Below, piece after piece: positions 265-6,417 of a DNA stretch of 6,417 nucleotides (position 1 is its first letter; the number at the start of each line of letters is the position of its first letter). The position numbers were made by a program, and so were the translations under genes. The DNA lies in contig DVKA01000112.1 in assembly GCA_018716365.1 (NCBI GenBank), positions 1 through 6,417 of the forward strand, read 5' to 3'. Origin of the DNA: Candidatus Caccocola faecipullorum (GTDB lineage Bacteria > Synergistota > Synergistia > Synergistales > Synergistaceae). The notes beneath the pieces are model-generated. The model made no database searches, was not told where the DNA came from, and was given only the letters and a program-made list of their open reading frames with translations.

Positions 265-651
265 TTACCGATTTTCGCTCCGTCCGAAATTTTCTGGACA
301 GCCGCGGCACACCCCGCCGCTGCCTCCGTCGTGATACTCCGCCGACCAGCGGCAGATGCTCTGGAGAATCGGTACGGCGGAGCGCCCCTTGTCCGTCAGC
401 GAATATTCGACGCGCGGCGGTATCTCGTCGTATGAGCGGCGCAGCGCCATGCCGCCTGCAAGGAGCTCCTTGAGCGCCGCTGATAGCACGGCGTCGGTGA
501 TGTCCGTAAGCTCCGCGCGCAGCTCGCCATAGCGCAGCGTCTTTTTCTGCGCGAGCACGCATATTATGCGGGATTTCCATTTCCCGCCGAAAAGCTCCAG
601 CCCGTATTCGAGCGGGCAGCGTATCTCCTTTTCCGTCTTTCTTCTGTACAT
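265..651 (-). CDS. HxlR-family winged-helix transcriptional regulator
   Basis: A 128-residue DNA-binding protein of the HxlR (MarR-like winged helix) family, whose members are usually dimeric repressors sensing redox or electrophile stress or metabolites. The family signature is clear: RCPLEYGLELFGGKWK at residues 11-26, then an R-Y-G-E-L helix, the recognition-helix region with L-S-x-A-L-K-E-L, and the wing Y-x-x-x-P-P-R-V-E-Y-S-L-T-D-K-G. I start at the ATG at 651: a GAAAGGGG (complement of 663-670) lies 11 nt upstream, while the ATG at 660 would leave only 2 nt, and a TTG at 690 would lie upstream of the apparent -10 box. Five cysteines are present (12, 31, 100, 115, 118). Cys12 is at the conserved N-terminal position used for thiol sensing in relatives such as YodB, and 115/118 form a C-terminal CxxC, so redox or metal sensing is plausible (inference). 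It is divergent from a flavin-binding protein gene, its likely target. Confidence 0.92.
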   Translation of the reverse strand: MYRRKTEKEIRCPLEYGLELFGGKWKSRIICVLAQKKTLRYGELRAELTDITDAVLSAALKELLAGGMALRRSYDEIPPRVEYSLTDKGRSAVPILQSICRWSAEYHDGGSGGVCRGCPENFGRSENR

Positions 652-676
652 CGCGCGCATCGCCCCTTTCGCCCTG

Positions 677-682
677 ATTATA
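677..682 (-). promoter_or_regulatory. -10 element for the HxlR gene
   Basis: A perfect TATAAT on the minus strand, with no convincing -35 at 16-19 nt (best hexamers GCATAA, CGCATA, TCGCAT). Transcription would start near 670, only about 20 nt before the chosen ATG at 651. This argues against the longer reading frame beginning at 690. Confidence 0.5.
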
Positions 683-725
683 CGCCGCAACGCGCGCTTT
701 ATGCGAGTTGCTATGAAAATAATAA

Positions 726-818: not shown

Positions 819-1217
819 ATGATGGATGAAAAAATAGTGAATCTGCTCAAAAACCAGCTCTGGTATCTCGCGACCTGCGACGGCGGCGAGCCGAACGCCG
901 TGCCCGTAGGCTTCAAGAAGGTCGCGGAGGACGGGACGCTGCTCATAGGCGACGTATTTTTCAAAGTTACGCTGAAGAACCTGCTCGCGAACGCGAACGT
1001 CTCTATCTCCGCCTGCGACGCCGCATCGGGCGAAGGCTATCAGGTCAAGGGCACGGCGGAATATTTCACGGAAGGCCCCGTCTTCGATGAGATAAAGGCG
1101 CTCGGCGAAGAGCTTTTCCACGGCAAGCTCGCGCCAAAGGGCGCGGTGCGCGTCACGCCGCGCAAGGCGATCGTCACGACGCCCGGCCCCGACAACAACA
1201 AGGTGACGGAGTACTAA
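819..1217 (+). CDS. Pyridoxamine 5'-phosphate oxidase family (FMN-binding split barrel) protein
   Basis: A 132-residue cytoplasmic protein of the small single-domain PNPOx-like family, which bind FMN (or sometimes F420 or heme) as dimers. Visible features are the N-terminal helix then W-Y-L-A-T-C (15-20), G-E-P-N-A-V-P-V-G-F (23-32), L-L-I-G-D (41-45) followed by F-F-K-V-T-L-K-N-L (47-55), the usual flavin-phosphate region, then V-S-I-S-A-C (61-66) and V-K-G-T-A-E-Y (76-82). It is far too short and too divergent to be the true vitamin B6 enzyme PdxH, and its substrate cannot be told from sequence. The start is set by a strong AAGGAGG at 805-811, 7 nt before the first ATG; a second ATG follows immediately. 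It is divergent from the HxlR gene and ends in its own terminator, so it is a single-gene unit, probably repressed by that regulator and possibly used in flavin-dependent redox or detoxification. Confidence 0.9.
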   Translation: MMDEKIVNLLKNQLWYLATCDGGEPNAVPVGFKKVAEDGTLLIGDVFFKVTLKNLLANANVSISACDAASGEGYQVKGTAEYFTEGPVFDEIKALGEELFHGKLAPKGAVRVTPRKAIVTTPGPDNNKVTEY

Positions 1218-1353: not shown

Positions 1354-2079
1354 ATGGCGGACAAAACAGAAAAATCTCCGCTTCAGGCGGCGTTTGAGAA
1401 AAATCTTAAATTTTTGAATCAGGAGAGCTATCCCGAGGATTTCTTCCGCGGCCTCTTCGGCGGAAAACTTACGACCGTCGCGGCGGGCGCTGTGGATTTT
1501 CCGACGGGGCGCGTCGTCCTCGCAGACCCGCTCTATTATCTCGGCACGAAGTACGAGACGCGGCTCGACCGCACCATACCTGCGGGCAGCTATGACGTGG
1601 AGCTTGCTGTGCTGCGCTCGCCCGTCGCGGGAATCCGCGTCGCGGCGGCGCGGCTCGTAATAAGCTCCGCGCCAGTCGTGAGCCGCGAGATAGCGATGCC
1701 GGAGGGACGCAGGCGCGAGGAGCTCGGACAGCCCGGCGTATGGACCTTCTTCGGCGTGGACGCCGGGCTCGCCTGTTTCGCTGACGCGCAGACGGCGGAG
1801 GAATACCGCGCATTCGCGGAGCAATGGCAGGAAGAGCACCCGGAGGGCAATATTTACGAGGATTACTTCGCGCGCCTCTTCGCTGAGAGCGCCGCGGCGC
1901 GTCCCGGCGTTCAGAGCGAGTACGGAGATTTCATCGCGTGGCGCGTGCCGGGAGGAAGCAGGCTGACTATGTTCACGAGCGGCCTCGGCGACGGCATATA
2001 CAGCGGTTACTGGGGGCTCGACGCGGACGGGAACGCCGCCGAGCTCGTCATACCTTTCATGAATCCAGAATTTTTCTAG
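1354..2079 (+). CDS. DUF4241 domain-containing protein
   Basis: A 241-residue soluble protein of unknown function that matches the DUF4241 family over most of its length. Recognisable elements are TGRVVLADPL at 51-60, then a P-x-G-x-Y-x-V-E-L-A turn and strand (76-85), R-V-A-A-A-R (95-100), F-G-V-D-A-G-L-A-C-F-A-D (133-144), and the C-terminal S-G-x-G-D-G-x-Y-x-x-Y-W-G-L-D-A-D-G at 209-226. The first 40 or so residues are a charged helical lead-in. No signal peptide or membrane segment is seen. The start is supported by GGAGG at 1342-1346, 7 nt before the ATG. The gene stands alone, with a terminator on each side and its own promoter, and shows no functional link to its neighbours. The family has no established biochemical role that I know of; members occur singly or in small clusters in many bacteria. 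Confidence 0.88.
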   Translation: MADKTEKSPLQAAFEKNLKFLNQESYPEDFFRGLFGGKLTTVAAGAVDFPTGRVVLADPLYYLGTKYETRLDRTIPAGSYDVELAVLRSPVAGIRVAAARLVISSAPVVSREIAMPEGRRREELGQPGVWTFFGVDAGLACFADAQTAEEYRAFAEQWQEEHPEGNIYEDYFARLFAESAAARPGVQSEYGDFIAWRVPGGSRLTMFTSGLGDGIYSGYWGLDADGNAAELVIPFMNPEFF

Positions 2080-2161: not shown

Positions 2162-2407
2162 TTACTTAACGAGCGGCATTACCGTCTCTTCGAAGAATTT
2201 GTGCGCGGTCTCGGGCGCGACGCTGTATATTTTGCCGTCGATGTCTACCGAGACTCCGTGCTCGCAGTTGCCGAGGCAGAAGGAGCCCGTGAGGTTTATC
2301 TTGTCGTGCAGTCCGCGCGCCTCTATCTCGTGCTGGAAGTACTGGAGGACGTTGTAGGCCCCTTTCAGATAGCAGGAGGTTCCGTTGCAGATTTTTATGG
2401 AGACCAT
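2162..2407 (-). CDS. Small stand-alone thioredoxin-like [2Fe-2S] ferredoxin, hydrogenase accessory subunit
   Basis: An 81-residue protein that is one thioredoxin-like [2Fe-2S] domain. The ligands are C7-x4-C12 (I-C-N-G-T-S-C) and C44-x3-C48 (F-C-L-G-N-C), the same CX4C/CX3C pattern as NuoE. It aligns visibly with the C-terminal half of the HydC protein of this operon (I-K-x-C-x-G-T-x-C-x-x-x-G, then C-L-G-x-C). It lacks the N-terminal helical domain of NuoE, so it is a cluster-bearing module only. It is the last gene of the operon, and its ATG follows the hydA stop codon with no gap and in the same frame. A likely role is as an electron-transfer subunit or exchangeable electron carrier of the hydrogenase. 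It could correspond to the C-terminal [2Fe-2S] domain fused to HydA in T. maritima, or play the part of Desulfovibrio HndB. The identity of the fold is firm; the role is inferred from position. Confidence 0.9.
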   Translation of the reverse strand: MVSIKICNGTSCYLKGAYNVLQYFQHEIEARGLHDKINLTGSFCLGNCEHGVSVDIDGKIYSVAPETAHKFFEETVMPLVK

Positions 2408-4108
2408 TTACTCCGCCTCCTTCGCGTCGTAATGGACGTGGAGCAGCTCGTGTACCTTGCCCTTGAGCAGGCCGTTGTAGAGCGAAATCATCAGCGGGTT
2501 TTCCTCGGAGCGCTTGATGCTCGACATTCTGTCGGCCGAGTAGAGGCCCTTGCCGCGCAGCTCCTTTTCATCGCGCAGCGCGAAAGGCTGGCCCGCGCCG
2601 CAGACGCAGCCGCCGGGGCACGCCATGACCTCGACGAAGTCGTAGTGTTCGCCGGCCTTGATTCTCTCGATTATTTTGCGCGCGTTGCCGAGGCCGCTGA
2701 CGACGGCTATTTTCAGCGTGCGCTCGCCGTAGGCCACCTCGGCTTCCTTGACGCCCTCGTCGCCGCGGACGCCCTTGAAGGCTATCGCGCGCAGGGCCGC
2801 GGGCGATTTGTCGGAGGTTATGCGGCGCAGCACCGCTTCCGTGACGCCGCCCGTAACGCCGAAGATTACGCCCGCGCCGCTCATCGTGCCGAAAGGCATG
2901 TCTACAGCCTCAGGCTCCAGCTCGTCGAAGACGATGCCGGATTCCTTTATCATCTGGATAAGCTCCTGCGTCGTTATAACGAAGTCCGTGTCGGGGCCGG
3001 CCTCGCTGCGGAATTCCTCGCGCGCCGCCTCGGCCTTCTTCGCGGTGCAGGGCATGACTGCGACGTGGTAGTGCTTACGCGGCGAATGTTTGTGGTTTTC
3101 CTTTATGACGGAAGCGAACATCTGCATCGGCGAGCGGCAGGTCGAAAGGTAGGGCACGACCTCTGGCATATTCTTCTCGCAGAAGTTCACCCACGCGGGG
3201 CAGCAGGAGGTGAAGAGCGGCATCTCGTCCGTCCCGCCGTTCGCTAGCTTTTCCAGGAACTCGGCGGACTCTTCGAGCACCGTGAGGTCGGCTCCCGTAG
3301 AGGTGTCGAAGACCTCGTTGAAGCCCATGCGGCGCAGCGCCGCGACGATGCGGCCCATAGCGTTCTCGCCGCCGCCTATGCCGAACTCTTCGCCTATCGC
3401 GACGCGCACGGCGGGCGCTATCTGGACGGAGACGCGCGCCTTCTTGTCGTCAAGCGCCTTCCAGACCTTCGCCGTGTCGTTCTTGACGACTATCGCGCCG
3501 GTCGGGCAGACCGCGGCGCACTGACCGCAGCCGACGCAGTTGCTTTCGGCAATCGGGATGTCGAAGACGGTGCTTATCGTCATCTTCGAGCCGCGGCGCG
3601 CGAAGTCTATCGCGCCGACGCTCTGTATTTCGTTGCACATTCTGACGCAGTCGCCGCAGAGGATGCACTTGTTGTGGTCGCGCGATATGCAGAGAGACGA
3701 GTCGTCGCGCCGCGGCTCCGACGCGCCGTTCGGGAAGCGCACGCCGTCTATGTTGAAGCGCATAGCGAGGTCCTGAAGCTTGCATTTGCCGTTGTTGTGG
3801 CAGGTGGTGCAGTCGCGGCAGTGGTCGGCGAGCAGCAGTTCGAGTATCATCTTGCGGTATTTGCGCAGCCGCTCCGTGTTCGTCCATATCTCCATGCCCT
3901 CTTTCGGCGGCGTGGAGCAGGCGGCATCAAGTCCGCCCCATTTGTTCTCGACCATGCACATACGGCATGCGCCGTAAATAGACAATTCAGAGTAGTAGCA
4001 GAAGGTCGGGAGCTGGATGCCCGCCTTGCGTATGACTTCGAGGACGTTTTTCTCTCCCGCTATCTCGACGGGGATTCCGTCTATCGTCATATATTTTTTC
4101 TGTTCCAT
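2408..4108 (-). CDS. hydA: [FeFe] hydrogenase catalytic subunit, NAD(P)-linked/bifurcating type (HydA/HndD)
   Basis: A 566-residue soluble enzyme that reversibly reduces protons to H2. Domains in order: plant-type [2Fe-2S] (C37, C48, C51, C64); His-Cys3 [4Fe-4S] (H96, C100, C103, C109); two-cluster ferredoxin domain (C148/C151/C154/C158 and C191/C194/C197/C201); then the H-cluster domain with motif 1 T-S-C-C-P-A-W (C302 proton relay, C303 ligand), motif 2 M-P-C-T-A-K-K-A-E (C354) and motif 3 from E493 to P508 (C497, C501); and the small-subunit-like tail ending H-E-L-L-H-V-H-Y. Against Clostridium CpI, remembered proton-path residues are kept (E280, E283, C302, S322), with Lys at 287 where CpI has Arg. 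Motif 3 has Ala505 where Gly is usual and an extra Cys503. An AAGGAGGG lies about 8 nt before the ATG at 4108; the gap from hydB is 4 nt. Electrons would pass between the HydB flavin and the H-cluster. It lacks a C-terminal [2Fe-2S] extension. H-cluster assembly needs HydE/F/G, absent here. Confidence 0.96.
   Translation of the reverse strand: MEQKKYMTIDGIPVEIAGEKNVLEVIRKAGIQLPTFCYYSELSIYGACRMCMVENKWGGLDAACSTPPKEGMEIWTNTERLRKYRKMILELLLADHCRDCTTCHNNGKCKLQDLAMRFNIDGVRFPNGASEPRRDDSSLCISRDHNKCILCGDCVRMCNEIQSVGAIDFARRGSKMTISTVFDIPIAESNCVGCGQCAAVCPTGAIVVKNDTAKVWKALDDKKARVSVQIAPAVRVAIGEEFGIGGGENAMGRIVAALRRMGFNEVFDTSTGADLTVLEESAEFLEKLANGGTDEMPLFTSCCPAWVNFCEKNMPEVVPYLSTCRSPMQMFASVIKENHKHSPRKHYHVAVMPCTAKKAEAAREEFRSEAGPDTDFVITTQELIQMIKESGIVFDELEPEAVDMPFGTMSGAGVIFGVTGGVTEAVLRRITSDKSPAALRAIAFKGVRGDEGVKEAEVAYGERTLKIAVVSGLGNARKIIERIKAGEHYDFVEVMACPGGCVCGAGQPFALRDEKELRGKGLYSADRMSSIKRSEENPLMISLYNGLLKGKVHELLHVHYDAKEAE
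2416..2422 (-). promoter_or_regulatory. Ribosome-binding site inside the end of hydA, setting the start of the 81-aa gene
   Basis: A perfect AAGGAGG (complement of 2416-2422) forms part of the codons for Lys-Glu-Ala near the HydA C-terminus, 8 nt before the ATG at 2407. It supports true independent initiation of the small protein and not merely translation left over from an interrupted fusion gene. Confidence 0.85.
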
Positions 4109-4112
4109 CGGG

Positions 4113-5990
4113 CTATCCCTCCTTCACCGCGTGGAACGGGCAGGCCGTCACGCAGGCTCCGCATTTGATGCATTTGTCCCTGTCTATGACGAAGGGCTTC
4201 TTTATCTCTCCGCTGATCGCGCCGACGGGGCATCCGCGCGCGCATTTCGAGCAGCCCTTGCAGAGCTCGGGGTCTATGCTGAAGCTCTTGAGCTTCGCGC
4301 AGGCTCCGACGGGGCAGTATTTTTTGTAGATGTGCGCCTCGTACTCGTCGCGGAAGTTCTTTATCGTGCTGACGACGGGCAGGGCCGCGGTCTTGCCGAG
4401 GCCGCAGAGCGCCGTGTGCGAAATCATGTCCGCAAGCTCAAGCAGCAGTTCGATGTCGCCGTCGCGGCCTTCGCCCGCGACTATGCGTTCGAGTATCGCA
4501 AGCATCTGTTTCGTGCCGCCGCGGCAGGGGACGCACTTTCCACAGGATTCATTCTGCGTGAAGTTCATGAAGAAACGCGCGACCTCGACCATGCAGGTCT
4601 TGCTGTCCATGACGACGAGGCCGCCGGAGCCTATCATCGCGCCCGCGGCAGAAAGCGAGTCGAAGTCGAGCGGGAGGTCAAGGTCTTTCTCCGTGAGGCA
4701 GCCGCCGGAGGGGCCGCCTATCTGGACGGCCTTGAAGTCCGCGCCGCCTCTCATGCCGCCGCCGACCTCGAAAACTATCTCGCGCAGCGTCGTGCCCATC
4801 GGAACTTCGATGAGGCCTGTGTTCTCTATGTTGCCGGTCAGAGCGAAGGCCTTCGTGCCGGGGCTCTTCTCCGGGCCGAGCGACTTGTACCATTCGACGC
4901 CGTTGTTGATGATGAGCGGGACGTTGGCGAATGTCTCGACGTTGTTCAGCACAGTCGGGCTGTCGAATAGACCGTGCTCGACCGTGCGCGGCGGCTTGAC
5001 GCGCGGCATTCCGCGCTTGCCCTCGATGGAGGCGGTCAGCGCGCTGCCCTCGCCACAGACGAAGGCTCCCGCGCCGCGGTTGATGTGAATTCTGAACGAG
5101 AAGCCGCTGCCCAGGATATTATCTCCGAGCAGTCCGAACTCCTCCGCCTGCGCGATGGCCGTGCGCAGACGCGAGACCGCCATCGGGTACTCCGCGCGCA
5201 CGTAGATATATCCGTTAGCCGCGCCGCAGGCGAGCCCCGCAATCATCATGCCTTCGAGCATACGGTGCGGGTCGCCCTCCATTATCGAGCGGTCCATGAA
5301 GGCGCCGGGGTCTCCCTCGTCGCCGTTGCAGACTATATACTTGTTAGCGGCCTTCTGGCGGCGCACCTGGCTCCACTTGCGTCCGGTCGGGAAGCCGCCG
5401 CCGCCGCGCCCGCGCAGGTTCGAGTCCGAAATCATCTGCACGATCTCTTCGCCGTCCATGTCGAAGAGCGCCGTCTCGAATGCGCGGTAGCCGCCGATGC
5501 CAAGATATTCTTTAATTGAAGTCGCGTCGATGTGCCCGCAGTGTTCGAGCACGTGGCGCGTCTGCTTCTTGTAGAACGGGATTTCTTCCTGCTTTTTGAA
5601 TACCTCGCCGTGCTTCGTATAGGCGAGGCGCTCTATATGCTCGCCGCCGATGATAGTCTTCTCCACTATCTCTTCGCAGTCGGCGGGCTTCACCTTGACG
5701 TAGAGCCAGCCCTGCGGCTCAATGCGGACGAGCGGCCCCATCTCGCAGAAGCCGTGGCAGCCGGATTTTTTGAGACCGACGGAGTCGTCGTGCGGCTCCT
5801 CCGCGAGCTCGACCTCGACTCTGAGGCCGCGCTCTTCCATGATTTTCTTAAGTTCGTCGTAGATGACGAGAGAGCCGCTCGAAATGCAGCCCGTACCGGC
5901 GCAGATGAGGATTTTCTTCTTTTCCCCGGCGAGACTCGCCGCGTACTCTTCTCTCAGCTTCCGAAGCTCTTCGCGCGTCTTGATAATCAT
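4113..5990 (-). CDS. hydB: NuoF-like flavoprotein subunit of the bifurcating hydrogenase (HydB/HndC)
   Basis: A 625-residue subunit that binds FMN and NAD(P)(H) and is the presumed bifurcation site. Domains in order: thioredoxin-like [2Fe-2S] (C30-x4-C35, C78-x3-C82); NuoF core with the glycine-rich G-R-G-G-G-G-F-P-T-G-R-K-W (194-206), C-N-G-D-E-G-D-P-G-A-F-M-D-R (221-234) and A-G-A-F-V-C-G-E-G-S-A-L (307-318); [4Fe-4S] site E-S-C-G-K-C-V-P-C-R (C483, C486, C489) plus C529; a C559/C564 pair in C-P-V-G-A-C; and a C-terminal 2[4Fe-4S] ferredoxin (C577/C580/C583/C587 and C607/C610/C613/C617). From memory, length and order match T. maritima HydB almost exactly. The ferredoxin-like tail separates it from complex I NuoF. 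Gly315 replaces the second Glu of the complex I motif G-E-E-T-A-L, which may affect NADH/NADPH choice. AGGAAGGAG lies 7 nt before the ATG; it begins 1 nt after hydC. A formate dehydrogenase-linked NuoF is a possible alternative, but the next gene makes the hydrogenase role clear. Confidence 0.95.
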   Translation of the reverse strand: MIIKTREELRKLREEYAASLAGEKKKILICAGTGCISSGSLVIYDELKKIMEERGLRVEVELAEEPHDDSVGLKKSGCHGFCEMGPLVRIEPQGWLYVKVKPADCEEIVEKTIIGGEHIERLAYTKHGEVFKKQEEIPFYKKQTRHVLEHCGHIDATSIKEYLGIGGYRAFETALFDMDGEEIVQMISDSNLRGRGGGGFPTGRKWSQVRRQKAANKYIVCNGDEGDPGAFMDRSIMEGDPHRMLEGMMIAGLACGAANGYIYVRAEYPMAVSRLRTAIAQAEEFGLLGDNILGSGFSFRIHINRGAGAFVCGEGSALTASIEGKRGMPRVKPPRTVEHGLFDSPTVLNNVETFANVPLIINNGVEWYKSLGPEKSPGTKAFALTGNIENTGLIEVPMGTTLREIVFEVGGGMRGGADFKAVQIGGPSGGCLTEKDLDLPLDFDSLSAAGAMIGSGGLVVMDSKTCMVEVARFFMNFTQNESCGKCVPCRGGTKQMLAILERIVAGEGRDGDIELLLELADMISHTALCGLGKTAALPVVSTIKNFRDEYEAHIYKKYCPVGACAKLKSFSIDPELCKGCSKCARGCPVGAISGEIKKPFVIDRDKCIKCGACVTACPFHAVKEG

Positions 5991-5991
5991 A

Positions 5992-6417
5992 TTAAAGCTC
6001 CTTCCTGAGAGCGGCGACCAGCTCAGCCGCCTTGTCCGGCGTCATCGCGGGATGCACCTCGTCGTTGACCGTAAGCACCGGCGCGAGGCCGCAGGCTCCG
6101 AGACACGAGACCGTCTCCACCGTGAAGCCGAGGTCGTCGGTCGTCACCTTTTTGTCCGTCAGGCCGAGCTCCGCGCGCAGCCTTTCAAGAATCGGGATGG
6201 AGCCGCGCACGTGGCAGGCCGTCCCGTCGCATACCTTGATGACGAACTTTCCCTTCGGATTAAGAGAAAAGTTCTCGTAGAAGGTAGCGACGCTGTAAAT
6301 GCGCGCCTCGGGCATCCCGAGCTTCTTCGAAAGGTAGGGAAAGATCTCGCGCGGCAGATAGCGGTAATGCTCCTGAATCTCCTGGAGTATCGCGATGACC
6401 GCCGTCGCCTGCGCGCC
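5992..6417 (-). CDS. hydC: NuoE-like [2Fe-2S] subunit of the bifurcating hydrogenase (HydC/HndA), N-terminus cut by window edge
   Basis: The reading frame is open to the window edge, giving 141 visible residues with a complete C-terminus; relatives have about 155-165, so only some 15-25 residues are missing. The visible part starts in the NuoE helical domain (L-P-R-E-I-F-P-Y-L, then the family hallmark I-Y-S-V-A-T-F-Y at 40-47) and continues into a thioredoxin-like domain holding one [2Fe-2S] cluster: C63-x4-C68 (V-C-D-G-T-A-C) and C104-x3-C108 (S-C-L-G-A-C). The Met at 6315 is internal and not the start, because the helical domain is in frame upstream of it. HydC packs against the NuoF-like subunit; its cluster serves electron storage or gating near the FMN. 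It is the first visible gene of the operon and ends 1 nt before hydB. The operon promoter, if immediately upstream, lies outside the window. Confidence 0.95.
   Translation of the reverse strand, partial: GAQATAVIAILQEIQEHYRYLPREIFPYLSKKLGMPEARIYSVATFYENFSLNPKGKFVIKVCDGTACHVRGSIPILERLRAELGLTDKKVTTDDLGFTVETVSCLGACGLAPVLTVNDEVHPAMTPDKAAELVAALRKEL

What the first reader, a model, noticed from the sequence alone, without database searches (positions are those of the whole stretch)
2162..2460. In-frame TAA-ATG junction splits a hydrogenase [2Fe-2S] domain into its own gene
The hydA stop (2408-2410) is followed without a gap and in the same frame by the ATG of an 81-aa thioredoxin-like [2Fe-2S] gene. 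One stop codon is all that separates HydA (566 aa) from a fusion of about 648 residues. From memory, T. maritima HydA is about 645 aa and carries an extra C-terminal [2Fe-2S] domain, so the two proteins together resemble a split version of that subunit. The AAGGAGG 8 nt upstream suggests real independent initiation, which would make the cluster module exchangeable or present at different stoichiometry. Readthrough of TAA could give both forms.
Basis: partly seen in the sequence, partly recalled or inferred. Interest (0 to 1): 0.72.

Follow-up and report, generated by a model that had tools for sequence, protein, structure and literature searches.

The report
Separate iron-sulfur gene trailing hydrogenase HydA

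Summary
The junction is real: hydA (566 aa) ends in TAA at 2410-2408 and the ATG of an 81-aa thioredoxin-like [2Fe-2S] ORF follows at once, in frame, 8 nt after AAGGAGG. HydA is not cut short: it is the ordinary short form, and the small gene is a conserved fourth gene after hydC-hydB-hydA, in 10 of 10 own-phylum genomes with close HydA and 48 of 76 related loci elsewhere. Gaps run from -29 to +12 nt, 8 of 58 in phase, 2 abutting, so readthrough is not a conserved trait; the sister genome has TAG, so the stop is no sequencing error. The protein is homologous to the C-terminal A5 domain of T. maritima HydA, and one clostridial genome has a natural fusion; but that domain is no closer to it than to other free small proteins, many of them beside the sensory hydrogenase HydS. 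Small genes behind hydA go with HydS in the genome (45 of 48 against 8 of 28), not significantly after correction for kinship. Likely role: separate [2Fe-2S] partner linking HydABC to H2 sensing.

The parts
2162..2407 (-). 81-aa predicted thioredoxin-like [2Fe-2S] protein gene, fourth gene of the hyd cluster; cysteines C7, C12, C44, C48
   Evidence: PF01257; C7, C12, C44, C48 invariant in 24 rows; model pLDDT 96.6; dN/dS 0.08
2416..2422 (-). AAGGAGG, likely ribosome-binding site of the small gene, inside the hydA end, 8 nt before ATG
   Evidence: a purine-rich stretch before the start is also seen in most of the other loci printed
2408..4108 (-). hydA, 566-aa short-form [FeFe] hydrogenase subunit (stop TAA at 2410-2408)
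   Evidence: PF02906, PF02256; TIGR02512 above cut-off; group A6 model NF040763 684 bits, below its cut-off of 765; 8a6t_A E 5.6e-159
4113..5990 (-). hydB, 625 aa, with N-terminal thioredoxin-like [2Fe-2S] domain, FMN/NADH domain and C-terminal ferredoxin-like (two [4Fe-4S]) domain
   Evidence: 8a6t_B E 1.2e-248 over residues 3-625
5992..6417 (-). hydC (NuoE-like), N terminus cut by the contig end
   Evidence: PF01257 161 bits; window is the whole of contig C13
2108..2136 (.). 11-pair G+C-rich hairpin between the convergent ends of the hyd cluster and the DUF4241 gene, terminator-like on the + strand
   Evidence: 1 found, 1.3 expected in shuffles, so weak

Best explanation
The 81-aa ORF is a separate, conserved fourth gene of the hydC-hydB-hydA cluster that encodes a predicted thioredoxin-like [2Fe-2S] protein, predicted to be translated from its own start, which likely works as a detachable electron-carrying partner of HydABC and would pass the redox state of the bifurcating hydrogenase to the H2-sensing hydrogenase HydS encoded elsewhere in the genome. 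Shown: the gene, its conserved place, its family, a paralogue beside HydS, its variable junction. Inferred: cluster binding, docking on HydABC in the manner of the HydA A5 domain of T. maritima, and the link to HydS. The abutting in-frame TAA-ATG would be one of many spacings that allow tight translational coupling and is not evidence of a fission or of readthrough.
For: Gene order hydC-hydB-hydA-small (hydC not always in the stretch held) in 10 of 10 own-phylum genomes with HydA at 73% identity or more and the small gene behind hydA in 48 of 76 related loci elsewhere. Gaps -29 to +12 nt. Family PF01257, four invariant cysteines, thioredoxin-like [2Fe-2S] fold. Best solved-sequence match is the A5 domain of TmHydA. 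A natural HydA-small fusion, followed by hydS and a SpoIIE-type phosphatase gene. Small-family presence against HydS presence in 391 Clostridia genomes: both 98, small only 4, HydS only 11, neither 278. Named HydA loci with an adjacent small gene: HydS in 45 of 48, without it 8 of 28. In the draw of 391, 45 genomes have HydA: small gene within 100 nt, HydS in 15 of 15 (12 of 12 without three in which that gene also abuts hydS), no small gene near hydA, 6 of 23. Own phylum 9 of 10 against 13 of 100. In C. thermocellum the gene after hydA, Cthe_0431, falls with sensor and hydrogenase genes after furfural (PMC3848806, passages); that it is of this family is inferred from A. straminisolvens and A. 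mesophilus (L097, L100).
Against: The genome-wide link of the family to HydS is carried largely by copies that lie beside hydS; in the draw of 391 the 6 genomes with a small gene 439-566 nt behind hydA and the fused one also have hydS right next to it, so those 7 prove nothing. For copies behind hydA the link does not reach significance on the HydA tree: 6 independent pairs, same way in 3.7, opposite way in 0.0, median p 0.125. Three of 48 loci with the gene (L093, L115, L134) and G160 (55% complete) show no HydS; 8 of 28 without the gene have HydS. The tree needs at least 10 gains or losses of the gene behind hydA, so HydABC seems to do without it. In T. maritima cluster A5 lies over 30 A from the other clusters and is judged not crucial for bifurcation (PMC9499530 section 8). 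In the fold search the TmHydA chain ranks sixth, behind HydC and HydB domains and a free ferredoxin. No physical contact with HydABC or HydS is shown.
Confidence: 0.5

Rival explanations
1. The small protein is the A5 bridge domain of HydABC supplied in trans: it docks on the C-terminal [4Fe-4S] domain of HydB as the HydA C-terminal domain does in T. maritima, and has nothing to do with HydS.
For: Best solved-sequence match is the A5 domain; a natural fusion to HydA exists; HydB here has the C-terminal ferredoxin-like domain; gene spacing is tight.
Against: The TmHydA domain is no closer to HydA-adjacent copies than to the other free small copies (mean scores 115 and 116) and scores higher with a divergent HydS-adjacent set (130); the tree cannot join them (AU p 0.161 for fused plus HydA-adjacent, 0.631 for the tree that shuts the fused out); the co-occurrence with HydS is unexplained.
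Confidence: 0.27
2. The small protein is a free [2Fe-2S] ferredoxin that serves the hydrogenase as a soluble electron carrier or assembly aid and forms no lasting complex.
Against: Position behind hydA in 58 loci and a fusion to HydA speak for a fixed partner.
Confidence: 0.17
3. A recent split of a longer HydA by one stop codon, with readthrough making both a short and a long HydA.
For: Abutting TAA-ATG in one frame; combined length of 648 residues is close to TmHydA (645).
Against: In phase in 8 of 58 loci only, overlapping in 13; TAG in place of TAA in the sister genome; short HydA is the rule among the listed relatives; the read-through query found no homologue with the domain at E 1e-3 (6 candidates only, low sensitivity).
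Confidence: 0.03

Closest known systems
C-terminal [2Fe-2S] (A5) domain of T. maritima HydA (7p5h, 7p8n; PMC9499530)
   Same: Homologous domain, CX4C and CX3C cysteine pairs; in HydA it follows the hydrogenase part as the small gene follows hydA here
   Different: Separate gene here; 22 of 58 identities; not a specific sister in the tree
Small subunit of group C D(M2f) sensory [FeFe] hydrogenases (TM1420 with TM1422; Cthe_0425-0426, as listed in PMC3561251)
   Same: The window genome carries a copy of this protein family next to hydS on C222 (43% identical) and a third copy on C258 (51%). That TM1420 is of this family is taken from the paper's listing and a reference title; its sequence was not compared
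   Different: This copy lies behind hydA, not beside hydS
HydD of Caldanaerobacter subterraneus HydABCD (PMC4694547)
   Same: A small protein predicted to hold one Fe-S cluster, encoded in the hyd cluster and co-purified with HydABC
   Different: Encoded before hydB, not after hydA; sequence not in hand, homology untested. A. woodii HydD is predicted to hold no cofactor (PMC6288185)
HydABC bifurcating hydrogenase of T. kivui (8a6t)
   Same: HydA and HydB of the window match nearly over their full length, both with short HydA
   Different: Only its HydC, not a free small protein, matched the 81-aa query among solved chains
Free thioredoxin-like [2Fe-2S] ferredoxins of Aquifex aeolicus (1m2a, 1f37) and Azotobacter FeSI (5abr)
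   Different: 20-34% identity; whether they are encoded with a hydrogenase was not looked at

Membership tests
PF01257 thioredoxin-like [2Fe-2S] ferredoxin | Curated gathering score | tested here: met
   32.5 bits against 24.8
PF01257 thioredoxin-like [2Fe-2S] ferredoxin | Four cluster cysteines | tested here: met
   C7, C12, C44, C48 invariant in 13 and 24 aligned rows
PF01257 thioredoxin-like [2Fe-2S] ferredoxin | Bound [2Fe-2S] cluster | not testable with these tools
   needs spectroscopy
A5 domain of T. maritima-type HydA | Sequence homology to HydA residues 571-639 | tested here: met
   E 7.7e-10
A5 domain of T. maritima-type HydA | Part of the HydA chain | tested here: not met
   stop codon in the window and in the sister genome
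A5 domain of T. maritima-type HydA | Specific common ancestry with HydA C-terminal domains | tested here: inconclusive
   AU tests reject nothing: p 0.161, 0.631, 0.363, 0.345
D(M2f) sensory hydrogenase small subunit | Encoded beside hydS | tested here: not met
   hydS is on contig C222 with a small gene of its own
D(M2f) sensory hydrogenase small subunit | Same sequence family as the HydS-adjacent copy | tested here: met
   43% to the C222 copy, E 7.2e-18
NuoE / HydC | NuoE model score and the N-terminal part of the chain | tested here: not met
   NuoE models 23-32 bits against cut-offs of 141-220; matched only from profile position 70 on
Bifurcating HydABC | HydB with N-terminal [2Fe-2S] and C-terminal two [4Fe-4S] domains, HydC present | tested here: met
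Bifurcating HydABC | NADH plus ferredoxin dependent activity | not testable with these tools
   needs enzyme assay
C. subterraneus HydD | Sequence homology | not tested
   its sequence was not in any call

The most novel reading that the evidence does not exclude
The A5 [2Fe-2S] module, fused to HydA in Thermotoga and one clostridial lineage and free behind hydA in Clostridia and the window's phylum, is not part of electron bifurcation at all but the wire between the bifurcating hydrogenase and the H2 sensor HydS, so that a catalytic hydrogenase reports its own redox state to a sensory one through paired paralogous [2Fe-2S] proteins.
Probability: 0.25. Interest if true: 0.72.

Novelty: new variant of a known kind. 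Interest (0 to 1): 0.42.

Why it matters
The T. maritima HydABC structure left cluster A5 without a role, isolated and absent from HydA in the other characterised bifurcating enzymes (PMC9499530, section 8). This survey shows that homologues of that domain often sit in trans right behind hydA in short-form enzymes, and that they tend to travel with the H2 sensor HydS. This gives a testable role to a cluster without one, and a candidate missing part for purified HydABC preparations.

Tried and rejected
Readthrough or fission: rejected from phase, overlap and stop-codon data. Sequencing error in the TAA: rejected, sister genome has TAG. NuoE-type free protein: rejected on model scores and length; HydC and HydB-N domains fall apart from it in the tree. 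Fused HydA in the own phylum: the 664-704 aa HydA chains L173-L177 (G142, G146, G150, G153, G134) end in a cysteine-free tail that does not match the small-domain model (four of the five also); the 713- and 642-aa frames L182 and L181 have no C-terminal extra domain. Fused homologues by protein search with the read-through query: none. Structure comparison does not tell the A5 domain from other thioredoxin-like ferredoxins. Domain trees place the TmHydA domain differently depending on which rows are in, with long branches; no use was made of its exact place. Rows dropped before counts: L111 and L166 (contig ends shortly after hydA), L159 and L168 (hydA interrupted); duplicates L067 = L171 and L069 = L172; 7 Clostridia genomes whose only HydS-profile hit was a chain of about 880 aa (counted as lacking HydS); the hydC rows, L126_far and L025_other. 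The classes near, adjacent and none in the 391-genome draw were read by me off the positions and typed into.

Full report
What is there. The window carries, on the minus strand, hydC (5992-6417, N terminus cut by the contig end), hydB (5990-4113, 625 aa), hydA (4108-2408, 566 aa) and an 81-aa ORF (2407-2162). The hydA stop TAA (2410-2408) and the ATG of the small ORF abut in one frame, and AAGGAGG lies 8 nt before the ATG.

The small protein. PF01257 at 32.5 bits; NuoE models reach only 23-32 bits against cut-offs of 141-220 and cover only their C-terminal part. C7, C12, C44 and C48 are invariant in 24 rows. AlphaFold2 on that alignment gives pLDDT 96.6, and the closest structures are thioredoxin-like [2Fe-2S] domains and ferredoxins; the fold does not tell subtypes apart, and the TmHydA chain ranks only sixth. 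Of solved sequences the best is T. maritima HydA residues 571-639 (E 7.7e-10), then the HydB N-terminal domain of A. mobile (7.1e-6) (the species name is from the literature, PMC9304861). The gene is under purifying selection (dN/dS 0.08 to 0.19 against four relatives).

HydA is not truncated. Its closest solved chain is T. kivui HydA, 571 aa. Of 7998 scored homologues the best 120 are listed: 118 are 560-599 aa long, two are 523 and 527. In 185 genomes of the own phylum, HydA at E 1e-80 is found in 110. The ten genomes with HydA at 73% identity or more (window included) all have the small gene directly behind hydA; the next 20 HydA loci (L070-L089, 53-55%) have no match to it in the stretch held, which is 306 nt or more. 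Among the 80 best named loci outside, of 434 found, four were dropped as cut or interrupted; 48 of the remaining 76 have the small gene within 100 nt, in Lachnospiraceae, Acetivibrio, Lutispora, Clostridium, Caproiciproducens, a Treponema MAG and others. Of 22 genomes without it that were searched, 4 carry a short small-family frame elsewhere at E 1e-20 or better (G190, G199, G203, G204).

The junction. Over 58 distinct loci the gap runs from -29 to +12 nt; it is 0 in two (the window and its same-genus relative G124), in phase in 8, overlapping in 13. G124 has TAG where the window has TAA. This pattern fits translational coupling at a flexible junction, and gives no support to a fission by one stop or to selected readthrough.

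Fused forms. A read-through query restricted to the domain found no fused homologue (6 candidates, none at E 1e-3). In 391 Clostridia genomes, 102 have a small-family match at E 1e-12, and only one of the listed matches lies in a long frame: G352, a 665-aa HydA with PF01257 at residues 584-657. There the order is hydC, hydB, hydA-small, hydS, SpoIIE-type phosphatase. This HydA is a long, separate branch in the HydA tree. So the fusion is real in nature and rare in this draw, and need not be ancestral to the window's arrangement. Apart from it the only fused form in hand is T. maritima.

Relatives of the small protein. The window genome has two more short copies: C258 (51%), behind adhE and an APH-family phosphotransferase gene, and C222 (43%), directly before a PAS-bearing [FeFe] hydrogenase, HydS. 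In G140 one cluster reads hydS, SpoIIE-type phosphatase, small, hydC, hydB, hydA, small; G141 has hydS and both small copies in the same places. One domain tree separates the small family from HydB-N and HydC domains (98/99), but the TmHydA domain is a long branch whose place shifts with the rows used, and AU tests reject none of four arrangements, including fused domains with HydB-N (p 0.363). Plain alignment scores of the TmHydA domain are the same to HydA-adjacent copies (mean 115, 57 rows) and to the other free copies (116, 24 rows), and higher to a divergent HydS-adjacent set (130, 6 rows). The claim that it is a split TmHydA domain therefore holds at the level of family only.

Link to HydS. 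In the 391 Clostridia genomes, the small family and HydS occur together in 98, small alone 4, HydS alone 11, neither 278 (7 genomes with only long HydS-like chains counted as lacking HydS). This is carried mainly by copies beside hydS. More telling: of 45 genomes of that draw with HydA at E 1e-170, the 15 with a small gene within 100 nt of hydA all have HydS, against 6 of 23 with none near; in three of the 15 (G280, G356, G294) the gene also lies next to hydS, and without them it is 12 of 12 (p 3e-5). Six more genomes have a small gene 439-566 nt behind hydA and one is fused; in these hydS is the next gene, so they add nothing. In the named loci: 45 of 48 against 8 of 28. In the own phylum: 9 of 10 against 13 of 100; the tenth genome is 55% complete, and the 100 include more distant HydA types. 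A motif scan finds hydS in the fetched stretch of 7 loci of the set with a small gene behind hydA; elsewhere it is further off. Kinship weakens all this: on a HydA tree of 91 rows the small gene behind hydA needs at least 10 changes, and six independent pairs on well supported branches give the same direction in 3.7, the opposite in 0.0, median p 0.125. The direction is consistent, the proof is not there.

Literature, as seen. eLife PMC9499530 (passages and section 8): HydA and HydB C termini form a mobile bridge; A5 is isolated; the other characterised enzymes lack the A5 part. PMC3561251 (passages) lists TM1420-TM1422 and Cthe_0425-0426 as sensory hydrogenases of the dimeric class and Cthe_0428-0430 as bifurcating, and says that sensory enzymes usually lie upstream of bifurcating ones. 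PMC3848806 (passages): the region Cthe_0422-0432 was the most down-regulated after furfural; its table lists the sensor genes, HydC, HydA and the hypothetical gene Cthe_0431. PMC10055695 (passages) cites a 2003 study of a [2Fe-2S] protein encoded in the T. maritima hydrogenase operon (seen as a reference only). PMC4694547 (passages): C. subterraneus HydA-D co-purify. I found no paper that treats the gene behind hydA as a subunit in searches, which cover open-licence PMC papers only.

Verdict. Observation confirmed; interpretation partly right (homology to the HydA domain, independent start) and partly wrong (split by one stop, readthrough). Most likely it is a conserved separate [2Fe-2S] partner of HydABC that is tied to H2 sensing; the partner role and the sensor link are inferred.

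Noticed in passing
G352:C42 (L211 3427-5424): Natural fusion of HydA with the small [2Fe-2S] domain (665 aa) followed by hydS and a SpoIIE-type phosphatase gene; the only long frame among the small-family matches listed for 391 Clostridia genomes.
   Followed up: yes
G000:C258 8788-12428 (L041): adhE, an APH-family phosphotransferase gene and a small [2Fe-2S] paralogue in a row, the same order as Cthe_0423-0425 in C. thermocellum; in the same-genus genome (L048) the row is not followed by hydS.
   Followed up: partly
L212 3058-3560, L213 406-930 and about a dozen more genomes: Two small [2Fe-2S] genes in tandem directly before hydS, a few nt apart.
   Followed up: no
L173, L174, L175, L176, L177: HydA chains of 664-704 aa in the window's family with a 78-91 aa cysteine-free, perhaps coiled-coil tail of unknown role.
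   Followed up: partly
L024, L028, L033, L034, L036, L039: A divergent set of small [2Fe-2S] proteins (C-M-G-S-S-C-F motif) directly before hydS in other families of the order.
   Followed up: no
L126 about 4024-4300: The small gene behind hydA is broken into two frames in this draft genome.
   Followed up: no
window 265-690 (-), 819-1217 (+), 1354-2079 (+): HxlR-type regulator, pyridoxamine-oxidase-like protein and DUF4241 protein next to the hyd cluster; the last is convergent with it.
   Followed up: no
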